A stretch of DNA of 64,000 nucleotides. Source: Methanococcoides sp. (GTDB lineage Archaea; Halobacteriota; Methanosarcinia; Methanosarcinales; Methanosarcinaceae). How positions within the stretch are numbered: the first letter of the stretch is position 1; each line of letters starts with the position of its first letter. The stretch is from assembly GCA_021108185.1 (NCBI GenBank), contig JAIORJ010000204.1, positions 1 to 64,000 of the forward strand, read 5' to 3'. The notes beneath the pieces are model-generated. The model had not been told where the DNA came from. It did not search any database and saw only the letters and a list, made by a program, of their open reading frames with translations. Shown in pieces: positions 53,090-58,566 of this stretch. Both the position numbers and the translations under genes were made by a program.

Positions 53090-54259
53090 TTACCATGTTT
53101 CTCCCTTCCACATGGAAAGCGTCTTATCATTGGTACTCTTGTTCAGCTTCCTGATCTTGACAATAAATTCATCACCTGCCACTTCCGGTTCACTGAAAAT
53201 GGCTTCCATGCCTTGCCGTCTTAAATATTCCTTGAACTTTGAAACGGTCTCAAGGCTTGATACCTTCATCTGAACTTCATCGGCTATACGGACACCATTT
53301 CCTATATTGATGATCGAATCTATCATGGGGTATAGTATGCTTCTGCCAAGTTGCAGGCAGCGCTTGTCTATATCATCCCCTGTCTCTTTCCACTCAACTG
53401 CTTGAAAACCTTCGCGCACTACCCTGGAGAACAGATAGTCCCTGCCGACGTCATTGTAGAACTTGAAAGCATGTTTCAGGTCTGCACAATTGCTTTGCGA
53501 ACAGGTATATTTTAAAGGTGCTATCTCCATCATGGGATCTTTGATAACAACGCCTTCGTGTTCTATCTTCCCAAGTTCCCTGATGATCTCACTTATCCTT
53601 AAGGGAGCTTCTTCCTTTGGGAATTCGCCAAAGAGCCTGACCTGTGTGAATCCGTATTCCTCTGCAAGCTGCCTTCGCTCATGAAGCGGAAGAGGAATGC
53701 CAGTATGTTTATGTCTGATATCGAAAACGAAAAGTTCAAGGGATTTGACATTGTATATCTTCTTTGGGATATAAGGATTGTCAGGACCCACCATCTCGCC
53801 GTGGAGTACAAGTTCCGGATGTTCTTCAAAAAAATCAATATCCAAAAACTTCTGTGCTCTTTCAGTAGAGTAAGGGCAGACATAACCTCCGCGGGTTATG
53901 GCAATGATCTTCCCGTCAACTGTAACGATGCGCACATTAAAACCGTTCATCTTCTCTTCGACACAGACTGTTTCGACATCAGAAAAGTGAGCTTCTATAG
54001 CAGGTTTTAACAGCATGGCCCGGTGTATCTTTGGAAATCCCATTATAAGTTCAAAACAGCCGTTCTTTTGCTACAGAACTGATCCGCTGTCAATATGAGA
54101 AATAGATGTATCAAAACGAAAAAGATGCTGATGTTCTCCCCAGAGCTGCAAAAGCTCACGCTTTTGTAATAATTTCTGGAGTTTGGAAAAGGGCAGGTCC
54201 AGATAATCTGCAGCTGCCCTCACATCCAATCTGATACGATCAGCATCATCAGGTCTCAT
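53090..54259 (-). CDS. Rnl3-family ATP-dependent RNA ligase with in-frame UAG (probable pyrrolysine)
   Basis: From ATG at 54257-54259 the frame runs 390 codons, interrupted only by TAG at 54071-54073 (codon 63). Upstream of it lies a family N-terminal domain (IRLDVRAAADYLDLPFSKL...HLFRFDTSISHIDSGSVL). Downstream, QKNGCFELIMGFPKIHRAM leads into the nucleotidyltransferase: catalytic Lys 103 in EEKMNGFNVR, then ELVLHGEMVG, ELFVFDIR and EGVVIKDP. The full length, 389, matches Rnl3/Pab1020-type ligases, while a start at the ATG nine codons after TAG would drop the N-terminal domain and has no ribosome site. In Methanosarcinaceae UAG can be read as pyrrolysine. A nonsense mutation is the alternative. 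Confidence 0.85.
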
Positions 54260-54263
54260 TCTT

Positions 54264-55040
54264 TCACTGTGCAAACGCACTAATAATGTTTCTTCTTGTA
54301 ATGAAACCTACCATATCTCCTTCAAGGTTCATTACCGGCAAACCACCGATCTTTTCCTTGAGCATCATCGCTGTAACATCCGACATCAGAGTGTTGGATT
54401 GTACGGTCTTGACACCTCTTTTCATAATATCTTCGACAATGAGGTTCTTAATACGCGAATCTTGCTGATTTCCAGAAACAATATCCCTGAAAGCACGCAT
54501 TGACTTAGCGATGTCCTGTTCAGTGACAATACCTACAAGTTTGCCATCCTCAATAACAGGGAACCTTCCAATATCTTCATCAAGGATTATGTGTCTGATA
54601 TGGCTGACCCTGTCTCCTGGATGTACGATTATAGGTTCCTTGGTCATTATTTCAGCAGCATAACCATCGATCTGACTATTGTTCAGCACTTCATTTGGTG
54701 TAACCCAACCGAGAACTTTCTCATTCTCGCTTACAATTATAATACCGCGGTTCTTTGCCATCAGTATAAGTGCATCATCCACGTCCATATCAGGCAGGAC
54801 CTTTACAAATTTATCTGAAACAGCGGTTGCTACATGGAGTGAAGATGCAGGTTTAGCTCCTTTCTTTCGTGTACCAAGTTCTTTAGTAAGACTTCTCATT
54901 GTAAGTATGCCGATAAGCTTATCGTCATGCTTTACCAAAAGTCGGCGTGTATCCTTCTTTTCCATAACATCAAGCGCATGGGATATCGTGTCTGCTTTAT
55001 CAATAGATATCGGTTCTACCATTATGTCCTTAACTTGCAT
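54264..55040 (-). CDS. Four-CBS-domain protein 1
   Basis: A 258-residue protein of four CBS motifs: [50 protein letters not shown] (with [20 protein letters not shown]) and [18 protein letters not shown]. There is no attached enzyme or transporter domain. Paired CBS motifs bind AMP, ATP, SAM or similar ligands. Start has GAGGTGA. It overlaps or abuts the RNA ligase start (stop at 54264, ligase ATG at 54259), so the ligase is probably in the same transcript. Confidence 0.92.
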
Positions 55041-55107
55041 ATCTTCTCACCTCTTTTATTTCGTGACGTCAGATCACTAATCTATCACAAATTTCTCAAA
55101 ATATCCA

Positions 55108-55947
55108 TCAAGCTGCTCTCATGATATCTGTCCTGCTGACAATACCGACGATCTCATCATTTTCAGCAATAGGGATACCTGTAATGTTCCTATCCACCAT
55201 GATCTTTGCAGCTTTTGTGATATCATCCCCAACATCCAGTACAGCAAATATGTCGCTCATTACATCCTCTGCCACAAGAGGGACAGTCTTGATATATCTG
55301 TATATTTTCTCACCAGCAGGCTCTGATTTTCTTGCCATCTTTATGTTCTTCGAAGGAAGTTCTCCCTCATTATCTGCAAGTACCTGAAGTGCAAGTTCTC
55401 TTGTCGTTATAATTCCAACCGCTTCCCCGGAATCATCTGTAACAATAAGCTTGCTGACATTGTTATTTTCCATTTCATCTATCACATGGTTGAGGGTGTG
55501 ATGCCTGTGAACAAAAATAGGATTTTCTGTCATGATCTCACCCAGATATTTCTTAACAGGGACCTCAGACATGTGGCGAATTATATCCACTCTTGTAACA
55601 ATACCCACAAGTTCTTCATTGTTGAGCACAGGGATGTTATTGATATCGTTATCTACCATCAATGCCGTTGCTTGAGGAACAGATGCATCTTTATAGATCG
55701 TAACAGGGTTTTCTGTCATTATCATCTTTACAGGAACCTTGTCAATAGGCCTTCGTCTCCACATTGGTTCTGCCTGGGCCAGGCGTCTTCCAAGATCGGA
55801 TTTAGTAACGATACCTACCATCTTGTTGCCTTCCGCGACAACAATTGTGCTTATCTTATGTCTAAGCATCAATTTCCTTGCATGTGACACAGGCTCTTCC
55901 GGTTCCATTACATATACCGGGGAACTCATGATGTCTGATACATTCAT
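55108..55947 (-). CDS. Four-CBS-domain protein 2
   Basis: The 279 residues hold four CBS motifs (DIMSSPVYVMEPEEPVSHA; MIMTENPVTIYKDASVPQA; EIMTENPIFVHRHHTLNH; DVMSDIFAVLDVGDDITKA), with a longer linker (about 195-215) between the third and fourth. The PVLNNEELVGIVTRVDI-type endings are intact in each. SD AGGAGGATGA is strong. It lies 67 bases before CBS protein 1 and 44 after CBS protein 3. Confidence 0.92.
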   Translation of the reverse strand: MNVSDIMSSPVYVMEPEEPVSHARKLMLRHKISTIVVAEGNKMVGIVTKSDLGRRLAQAEPMWRRRPIDKVPVKMIMTENPVTIYKDASVPQATALMVDNDINNIPVLNNEELVGIVTRVDIIRHMSEVPVKKYLGEIMTENPIFVHRHHTLNHVIDEMENNNVSKLIVTDDSGEAVGIITTRELALQVLADNEGELPSKNIKMARKSEPAGEKIYRYIKTVPLVAEDVMSDIFAVLDVGDDITKAAKIMVDRNITGIPIAENDEIVGIVSRTDIMRAA

Positions 55948-55991
55948 ATCTCATCCTCCTTTGTTTGTTAGTTATTCTGTGGAAATAAAAT

Positions 55992-56939
55992 TCATTCAGC
56001 TATTGCTCTTAGGATATCCCTCTCTGTGATTATACCACAAAGCTCTTCATTATCGATAACAGGCAGGGATCCAACACCATGTTTGAGCATGAGGCTGCTC
56101 GCTTCTCCGAGGTCTATATCAGAAGTGATCCATACTACATCCTTTGAGACCAATGAACTGATAGGAACATCCATTGCTTCATGGAAATTACCGGTGACCA
56201 AATTCTCAAATACCTCTCCGTTCCCTAAAAAGTTCATAATGGCCGATGCATTGACAACTCCTATGAGTATATCCTTCTTTACAACAGGAAGTCTTCTAAA
56301 GTTGTTCTTGACCATCACTTTAGCAGCATCTCCGATCTTCATATCAGCAGACGCCTTTTCCACCTTTTTGCTCATGTGACCGGCAACTGACATATTAGTT
56401 GGAAGTCCGCTTGCAAACGTTAAGAAGTCCTTCTCAGTGCATATTCCACAAACATGATCTGTGCTATCAACTACAGGCAAGCTTCCTATGTTGTGCTTCA
56501 GCATGAGCTCAAAGGCTTCCTTGATATTGCCAGTGCTATGAATGGACACTACGTGGGGTTGCATTATCGAACTTATATCAGCGTTGATAGCAGCCAGTAA
56601 GTTCCCTTTGTATTTATTTTCAATAAGTTGGCTCTTATCTCCCCCAAGGAAATCGATTATGTCAAAAGATGTAATGATACCTTCAATTTTGTTTGTGCCA
56701 GCGTTTGTGATAGGAATATGCCTGAACTTCCTTTCTGTCATTATCTTGATGGCATCAATGATCTTTGTTGTAGGCGGGATAGTAATAACATGCTTAGTTG
56801 CCACAGACATAATATCCCCTTCATGCTCTGATATCTTCGCATGGAAATCGAAAGCCCTCTTATCCATTGTTTCATTGGTAGCAAACTGAACAGGATCCTT
56901 TTTCATGCTACCCACAGGGCCGTTGTTTTGAAGTTTCAT
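55992..56939 (-). CDS. Four-CBS-domain protein 3
   Basis: A 315-residue protein with an unconserved N-terminal tail (about 1-40) and four CBS motifs (IMSVATKHVITIPPTTK; SIMQPHVVSIHSTGNIK; HMSKKVEKASADMKIGD; LVSKDVVWITSDIDLGE). ATG at 56937-56939 is chosen: AAGGAGGATAAA immediately precedes it, while an in-frame TTG lies upstream of that site. The second motif has GICTEKDF in place of the usual GIVTxxD. Confidence 0.9.
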   Translation of the reverse strand: MKLQNNGPVGSMKKDPVQFATNETMDKRAFDFHAKISEHEGDIMSVATKHVITIPPTTKIIDAIKIMTERKFRHIPITNAGTNKIEGIITSFDIIDFLGGDKSQLIENKYKGNLLAAINADISSIMQPHVVSIHSTGNIKEAFELMLKHNIGSLPVVDSTDHVCGICTEKDFLTFASGLPTNMSVAGHMSKKVEKASADMKIGDAAKVMVKNNFRRLPVVKKDILIGVVNASAIMNFLGNGEVFENLVTGNFHEAMDVPISSLVSKDVVWITSDIDLGEASSLMLKHGVGSLPVIDNEELCGIITERDILRAIAE

Positions 56940-57116
56940 TTTATCCTCCTTATTTTTTTCCAATAATTAAGTATTCGATAGGCTGTACGAATTTTGGAAT
57001 AAACAAAAAGCCATCCAAAAATATTGAAAGGTCTGTGGTTACAGTCCTAATTGTTTAATTTTTATTTCTTGATAGATTCGCCTCAGTTATGCTAGGTCAT
57101 AAAGCAGAACAAACAC

Positions 57117-57893
57117 TCATAAAGAAGCACGCAGTATATCGGTCCGGGCCACTATTCCTGTTACTTTCCCATCATCAACAACCGTCAGTCTTCCGATATC
57201 ATAATGGAGCATCTTTTCAATACACTCTTTTACACTGGTGTCAGAAGCCACTGTATAGGCAGGAGTTGACATTATCTGTTCAACTGGCGGAACATCTTTG
57301 GATTGTGTTTGATTTTTCTCACTAATGGCTGGCCTGACAAATCCGGATTTTATGATATCCCTTATAGTTACCATGCCCTGAAGTTCATGAGCATTGGTGA
57401 CCACAGGTAGACCGGAACAATTCGATGTAAGTAGGATCGGCCAGATTTTTGTAAGAATATCCTGTGGGTTACAGCTAATGACATCAGTTGTCATGACATC
57501 AGCTGCAACTTTGGTATTTACTTTATGAGATCCGATATTCGCAAGAATATCTGAATTGCTTACCATTCCGACTATCTCTTTATCAGTTTCAGAGGCCACT
57601 ACTGGACAGAGCCCGACACCTGATGCAATAATAAGTCTTGCAGCATCCATGATGTCTGTTTCTTGTGTTATAAGCGGACAATCATTCACGAATCCCTCAA
57701 TGGTTACATTGGAACGTGTGGATGTGATGTTGAGAATATCCTTATCTTTAAGAATACCAACCATCTTTCCGTTGGCATTGGTTACAGCAAGACCTCTAAG
57801 AAAATGGTCTCTAATTAACTGCCGTGCATATGTCATGTTGTCGTGCTCTTTCACACTAACAGCATCCTTGGACATAATCTCGTTGACTTTCAT
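57117..57893 (-). CDS. Four-CBS-domain protein 4
   Basis: The 258 residues begin MKVNEIMSKDAVSVKEHD and carry four CBS motifs (DCPLITQETDIMD; DVMTTDVISCNPQDILT; QIMSTPAYTVASDTSVKE, with the closing GIVARTDILRASL). ATG at 57891-57893 follows GGGGG; an in-frame TTG ten codons earlier has no ribosome site. The gap to CBS protein 3 is 177 bases, the largest in the cluster, and could hold a second promoter. Confidence 0.9.
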   Translation of the reverse strand: MKVNEIMSKDAVSVKEHDNMTYARQLIRDHFLRGLAVTNANGKMVGILKDKDILNITSTRSNVTIEGFVNDCPLITQETDIMDAARLIIASGVGLCPVVASETDKEIVGMVSNSDILANIGSHKVNTKVAADVMTTDVISCNPQDILTKIWPILLTSNCSGLPVVTNAHELQGMVTIRDIIKSGFVRPAISEKNQTQSKDVPPVEQIMSTPAYTVASDTSVKECIEKMLHYDIGRLTVVDDGKVTGIVARTDILRASL

Positions 57894-57944
57894 ATAAAAC
57901 CCCCGTTCATATGAATCAGACAAAGAAGCTTCATCTTCATCTGC

Positions 57945-58544
57945 TTATTCTTCTTCTTCTCTACAATCTTCGCATAGTATAAGACCGTTAAATTGATTTA
58001 GATCATCCACATGTGATCCGCACCTTTGACATACCCCCCTTTCAATGTCAATAGTTTCAACGACATCCTGCTCTCTATTTATCTCTATAAGGTCTTCCAG
58101 AATTGTATTCAGACCCGGAGCTACTGCAAGGATGTCCCTGTCGGTAACAAGTCCTACGATCGCCTTCCCATCGGTGACCGCAAGCCTTCGAATATGGAAT
58201 TTCACCATCATTTCAGATGCTTTAATGGCACCAGTGTTTGGTTTCACTGTTAGAATAGGTGATGACATTATTTCTTCAGCATTTACGGTGTGGGGCATGG
58301 CATCTTTTACCATTACCTTACATACCATATCTCTTTCAGTTATAATGCCTGTAGCTTCACCATATTTTGTGATGATGACGCTATCAATATTCTGTTCATC
58401 CATAGCCTTGGCTACTTCAAGAGCTGTGCTTGTCACGTCAAGGATAAAGACATCCTTAGTCATTATCTCATGAACGGTAACATCTTTCAGGGTCTCTTTG
58501 ATAGACCCGTCCGCCTCAATGTCCCCTTTGGTCACCAGGACCAT
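57945..58544 (-). CDS. Two-CBS-domain protein with C-terminal zinc ribbon (CBS protein 5)
   Basis: The 199 residues have two CBS motifs (HEIMTKDVFILDVTSTALE and EIMSSPILTVKPNTGAI, ending VGLVTDRDILAVAPG) and then a rubredoxin-like zinc ribbon (VCQRCGSHVDDLNQFNGLILCEDC). CBS plus zinc ribbon proteins are known in archaea. ATG at 58542-58544 is chosen, preceded by AGGAGGGTGAT, one of the strongest ribosome sites here. It is the first gene of the cluster, behind TATA 58612 and a palindromic operator. Confidence 0.92.
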   Translation of the reverse strand: MVLVTKGDIEADGSIKETLKDVTVHEIMTKDVFILDVTSTALEVAKAMDEQNIDSVIITKYGEATGIITERDMVCKVMVKDAMPHTVNAEEIMSSPILTVKPNTGAIKASEMMVKFHIRRLAVTDGKAIVGLVTDRDILAVAPGLNTILEDLIEINREQDVVETIDIERGVCQRCGSHVDDLNQFNGLILCEDCREEEE

Positions 58545-58566
58545 AAATATCACCCTCCTATGCTAC

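What the first reader, a model, noticed from the sequence alone, without database searches (positions are those of the whole stretch)
53090..54259. RNA ligase gene kept in frame across an internal UAG: probable pyrrolysine protein
TAG at 54071-54073 interrupts a single reading frame whose two sides are both recognisable parts of an Rnl3 RNA ligase. The combined length fits the family, and no ribosome site precedes the next ATG. Members of this archaeal family use pyrrolysine at UAG, known mainly from methylamine methyltransferases; UAG in an RNA-processing enzyme near its N-terminal domain would be unusual. Read-through could tie ligase production to pyrrolysine supply, giving full-length and restarted forms.
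Basis: partly seen in the sequence, partly recalled or inferred. Interest (0 to 1): 0.85.

Follow-up and report, generated by a model that had tools for sequence, protein, structure and literature searches.

The report
RNA ligase gene with pyrrolysine codon
In this methane-making archaeon (a Methanococcoides species) an ordinary RNA-joining enzyme is read through a UAG codon, almost certainly with the rare amino acid pyrrolysine; the codon has persisted across most of the genus but sits at a variable site where other residues also serve, so it looks tolerated rather than essential.

Summary
Confirmed: an in-frame TAG (54071-54073, minus strand, codon 63) splits one Rnl3 RNA ligase frame (TIGR01209, 389 codons). 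It is no error or pseudogene. The same codon is TAG in 9 of 11 Methanococcoides genomes spanning two clades with saturated synonymous divergence, and the part after it evolves under strong purifying selection (dN/dS about 0.07-0.09). The other two genomes have CAG (M. alaskense) and TGC; sister genera mostly have Tyr (TAC/TAT), otherwise Cys, Val, Ile or Leu. The genome holds the full pyl set (tRNA-Pyl(CUA), pylS, B, C, D) and a TAG-bearing trimethylamine methyltransferase; TAG ends only 8 of 354 ORFs of 150 or more codons. Best reading: UAG is decoded as pyrrolysine, which replaced Tyr at a non-catalytic site in the genus ancestor and is tolerated, resembling the neutral case reported for tRNA-His guanylyltransferase of Methanosarcina acetivorans. 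The 'restarted form' is not supported: the next ATG is missing in 6 of 9 TAG-bearing genomes. Nothing shows control by pyrrolysine supply. Ligase: new member of a known kind, moderate interest. Noticed in passing, more striking: a histidine-kinase subfamily carries TAG at one fixed HATPase position in all 11 genomes and every close paralogue examined.

The parts
53090..54259 (-). Rnl3-family (Pab1020 / MthRnl type) ATP-dependent RNA ligase gene, 389 codons with one in-frame TAG, stop TAA
54071..54073 (-). in-frame TAG, codon 63, read as pyrrolysine (inferred)
   Evidence: TAG at this column in 9 of 11 genus genomes
54074..54259 (-). N-terminal 62 codons, conserved in the genus
53090..54070 (-). 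part after the TAG: nucleotidyltransferase domain (PF09414, catalytic Lys103 in EEKMNGFN) and C-terminal domain (PF18330); dN/dS about 0.07-0.09 between the two clades of the genus
54041..54043 (-). next in-frame ATG (proposed restart); not conserved among TAG-bearing relatives, no Shine-Dalgarno match
54264..55040 (-). CBS-domain-like protein gene ending 4 bases before the ligase ATG, likely same transcript (inferred)
   Evidence: the same gene end lies upstream in the genus genomes

Best explanation
The gene makes one full-length Rnl3 RNA ligase by decoding UAG at codon 63 with pyrrolysyl-tRNA(CUA). A TAC or TAT (Tyr) codon became TAG by one transversion in the ancestor of Methanococcoides, at a variable, non-catalytic position between the N-terminal segment and the nucleotidyltransferase domain. 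Because these cells decode UAG with pyrrolysine in general, the change was tolerated and has persisted; it was later replaced by Gln (CAG) in M. alaskense and by Cys (TGC) in another species. Shown: the codon, its conservation and replacements, purifying selection after it, the pyl genes. Inferred: pyrrolysine at the position, ligase activity, the Tyr-to-TAG direction, near-neutrality.
For: One TIGR01209 match across the TAG. TAG in 9 of 11 genus genomes, at one column. After the TAG, dN about 0.17 against dS over 2 (own versus M. vulcani and G001), dN/dS 0.07-0.09; before it, about 0.24-0.33 for own against three members of the other clade, so both sides are kept. Tree: the two clades of the genus are well separated and the fewest changes between TAG and sense are 3, one gain and two losses. 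pylS, B, C, D by NCBIfam and tRNA-Pyl with anticodon CUA in the same genome; pylS in all 11. Own trimethylamine methyltransferase has its TAG. TAG ends 8 of 354 ORFs of at least 150 codons in 484 kb of this genome. Other internal TAGs with homology on both sides: phosphoglycolate phosphatase and a histidine kinase. Variable residue at the site elsewhere.
Against: No protein data for this genome. UAG can also terminate in pyl archaea: a reporter in M. acetivorans gave 20-30% read-through (PMC2933860), and pylB here also ends in TAG just before pylC, so some ligase translation may stop at codon 62. Persistence in 9 of 11 genomes could also reflect weak selection for pyrrolysine, which was not tested against a fitted neutral rate. 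Another suppressor tRNA with a CUA anticodon was not excluded genome-wide.
Confidence: 0.88

Rival explanations
1. Pyrrolysine at codon 63 has a selected role (stability, RNA binding or a link of ligase output to methylamine growth), so TAG is kept by selection.
For: TAG retained in both clades over saturated synonymous divergence, whereas TAG in phosphoglycolate phosphatase is private to this species and TAG in a MobA-like gene private to M. burtonii.
Against: Two independent replacements by Gln and Cys inside the genus, and Tyr, Val, Ile, Leu, Cys outside. With 9 of 11 rows alike the column is not unusually conserved: 274 of 386 columns are at least as constant. It is 40 residues before catalytic Lys103.
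Confidence: 0.06
2. UAG terminates; the cell makes a 62-residue peptide and a separately started C-terminal ligase (ATG 54043 or Met82).
For: Both downstream Met codons keep catalytic Lys103; UAG is partly a stop in pyl archaea (PMC2933860).
Against: ATG 54043 is absent in 6 of 9 TAG-bearing genomes and no Shine-Dalgarno match lies before either Met; the family is a single chain and the N-terminal part is under constraint.
Confidence: 0.04
3. Pseudogene or assembly error.
For: An in-frame stop codon by the standard code.
Against: The same TAG in nine assemblies, strong purifying selection after it, no other lesion.
Confidence: 0.01

Closest known systems
tRNA-His guanylyltransferase with in-frame UAG in Methanosarcina acetivorans (Heinemann et al. 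2009, cited in PMC2933860 and PMC8211752)
   Same: RNA-processing enzyme, one in-frame amber codon, sense codon in relatives, explained by neutral evolution in a cell that decodes UAG generally
   Different: That codon is reported in M. acetivorans only; here it is shared by 9 of 11 genomes of a genus and survives saturated synonymous divergence
Rnl3 RNA ligases: MthRnl (PDB 5d1o), Pab1020 (2vug), TIGR01209
   Same: Domain order, catalytic EEKMNG lysine motif, length
   Different: They have a sense codon (Tyr in 5d1o) at the site
Methylamine methyltransferases MtmB, MtbB, MttB
   Same: UAG decoded as pyrrolysine by pylTSBCD
   Different: There pyrrolysine activates the methyl group (PMC9842639) and is a conserved trait of each class; here it is replaceable and not at a catalytic motif
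'Pyl code' archaea in which all TAG codons are read as pyrrolysine (Science 2025; recalled from memory, not held)
   Same: Rare TAG, non-methyltransferase genes with internal TAG
   Different: Whether this ligase is in that paper's protein lists could not be checked

Membership tests
Rnl3 / TIGR01209 RNA ligase | full-length match above the curated cut-off | tested here: met
   381.6 bits against cut-off 136.9, model 6-373 of 375
Rnl3 / TIGR01209 RNA ligase | catalytic Lys motif and C-terminal ligase domain PF18330 | tested here: met
   K103 in EEKMNGFN (taken to correspond to K97 of MthRnl, PMC5599603), PF18330 E 3e-38
Rnl3 / TIGR01209 RNA ligase | RNA ligation or circularisation activity | not testable with these tools
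   needs purified enzyme
pyrrolysine-containing protein | in-frame TAG with homologous protein on both sides | tested here: met
pyrrolysine-containing protein | host has pylT, pylS and pylBCD | tested here: met
pyrrolysine-containing protein | pyrrolysine found in the protein | not testable with these tools
   mass spectrometry required
essential (methyltransferase-like) use of pyrrolysine | pyrrolysine kept in all members | tested here: not met
   CAG and TGC in two genus members, sense codons outside
UAG decoding with a downstream RNA element (PYLIS-like) | stable structure just after the UAG | tested here: not met
   fold no better than shuffles, z +0.67

The most novel reading that the evidence does not exclude
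Pyrrolysine at codon 63 is selected for in the RNA ligase of most Methanococcoides, making RNA ligation depend on pyrrolysine supply, so that RNA processing is tied to methylamine-linked genetic decoding.
Probability: 0.05. Interest if true: 0.75.

Novelty: new member of a known kind. Interest (0 to 1): 0.4.

Why it matters
It adds a well-supported non-methyltransferase pyrrolysine protein whose UAG is old on the scale of a genus, with sense-codon relatives inside that genus as natural controls. It supports the view that these archaea read UAG as an ordinary, rare sense codon, and it means that standard gene calling splits or drops this RNA ligase. It also led to a histidine-kinase subfamily whose UAG is constant, a better place to look for functional pyrrolysine outside methyltransferases.

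Tried and rejected
RNA structure after the UAG: none beyond shuffles. AlphaFold model on seven sequences: poor (mean pLDDT 43), not used beyond a weak hint that residue 63 lies in a strand. A first stop-codon count with a codon-usage cut-off dropped too many genes and was replaced. Sigma-70 promoter scan is not suited to archaea and was ignored. Literature searches found no report of pyrrolysine in an RNA ligase (library limited to open papers); the Science 2025 paper and the 2009 PNAS paper are not held. Recent transfer of the ligase between clades: rejected, the two clades keep long separate branches.

Full report
What was checked. The frame 54259-53090 on the minus strand translates to 389 residues with a single TAG at codon 63, 54071-54073. 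It is one RNA ligase of the Rnl3 kind: TIGR01209 with 382 bits over residues 21-389, Pfam RNA_ligase and the Pab1020 C-terminal region, and as closest solved relative 5d1o (deposited as an ATP-dependent RNA ligase; MthRnl by my own knowledge), where the TAG column holds a tyrosine.

Relatives. A search of 80 related genomes gave the ligase in 63. Loci from the named collection identify the genus as Methanococcoides (M. seepicolus, M. alaskense, M. vulcani); G005, a single contig of 2,575,032 bases, is M. burtonii by its length (own knowledge). In the genus 9 of 11 genomes, own included, have TAG at this column; M. alaskense has CAG and G007 has TGC. Members of other genera of the family have TAC or TAT in most cases, and TGC, GTA, ATC or CTG in others. 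The fewest changes on a protein tree built without this column are 3 for TAG against sense, one gain at the base of the genus and two losses. Parsimony does not give certainty about direction, but tyrosine codons on several branches outside fit TAC or TAT to TAG.

Selection. Between own and M. vulcani or G001 the part after the TAG has dN about 0.17 and dS over 2, dN/dS 0.07-0.09; the 59-62 codons before it have dN/dS about 0.24-0.33 against M. vulcani, G001 and G010. Both halves are therefore kept as protein. An error or a decayed gene is excluded. With 9 of 11 rows alike the TAG column is not unusually constant: 274 of 386 columns are at least as conserved.

Decoding machinery. The own genome has tRNA-Pyl with anticodon CUA, PylS, PylB, PylC and PylD in one cluster, and all 11 genomes have PylS. 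The own trimethylamine methyltransferase carries its TAG. TAG is rare as an end codon: 8 of 354 ORFs of at least 150 codons in 484 kb. In the same sample other genes have TAG inside a recognisable protein: a phosphoglycolate phosphatase whose family match runs through the TAG and a histidine kinase with the TAG inside its HATPase domain. The phosphatase TAG is private to this species, and a TAG in a MobA-like gene is private to M. burtonii. The ligase TAG is thus older than these but not alone. UAG serves as sense and stop in pyl archaea according to PMC2933860, and pylB here also ends in TAG directly before the pylC start, so partial termination is possible.

Restart and control. The ATG ten codons after the TAG is present in three of nine TAG-bearing genomes; the next, Met82, is constant, but neither has a Shine-Dalgarno match. 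No stable RNA structure follows the UAG. The idea of a regulated short form is not supported. The ligase ATG starts 4 bases after the stop of a CBS-domain-like gene, and the end of a like gene lies upstream in the genus genomes.

How it likely works. Pyrrolysyl-tRNA reads codon 63 and the ribosome makes one full-length ligase; the efficiency is unmeasured. The residue lies 40 positions before the catalytic lysine (K103, taken as equal to K97 of MthRnl, PMC5599603) and the position holds Tyr, Cys, Gln, Val, Ile or Leu in relatives, so no catalytic role is expected. This matches the neutral origin reported for tRNA-His guanylyltransferase of M. acetivorans (PMC2933860, PMC8211752), with the difference that the present codon is shared across a genus.

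Limits. No protein evidence; the recent work on archaea that read all TAG codons as pyrrolysine could not be opened, and this ligase may be in its lists. The structure model was too poor to place the residue.

In passing. A subfamily of PAS histidine kinases has TAG at one fixed place (mostly FTPENGC[I/V]-TAG) in all 11 genomes, and all 20 listed homologues at 61% identity or more have one TAG, while the sense relatives read in a sister genus have mostly lysine. Unlike the ligase there is no loss among them. An in-frame UAG in a histidine kinase of other Methanosarcinaceae was listed as a candidate before (PMC3639795). This deserves its own study.

Noticed in passing
L041 14000-16744 (+) (G000:C2), L117-L127, L133-L135, L141, L142, L144, L145: PAS histidine-kinase subfamily with TAG at one fixed position inside HATPase_c in all 11 Methanococcoides genomes and one TAG in every listed homologue of at least 61% identity; sense relatives in a sister genus mostly have Lys there. 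Candidate for functional pyrrolysine outside methyltransferases.
   Followed up: partly
L138, L139, L140: A second, separate histidine-kinase group has TAG at another HATPase position (EGG-TAG-[IV]MVR) in three genomes.
   Followed up: partly
L048 6467-7147 (+): Phosphoglycolate phosphatase with TAG at codon 206, family match continues past it; all 10 other genus genomes have a sense codon.
   Followed up: yes
L062 7125-7733 (-) (M. burtonii): MobA-like nucleotidyltransferase with TAG at codon 68, private to M. burtonii.
   Followed up: yes
L064 14240-15532 (-) (M. burtonii): 430-codon frame of unknown family with TAG at codon 151.
   Followed up: no
L034 1471-2865 (+) (G000:C44): Full-length MtmB homologue (464 aa, PF05369) without any in-frame TAG, so possibly a non-pyrrolysine member of the monomethylamine methyltransferase family.
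   Followed up: no
L032 5907-6968 (-): pylB ends in TAG directly before pylC; UAG here may serve as a stop or be read through 42 codons.
   Followed up: no
window 54264-58553: Tandem row of about five genes that look like CBS-domain proteins directly upstream of the ligase on the same strand.
   Followed up: no
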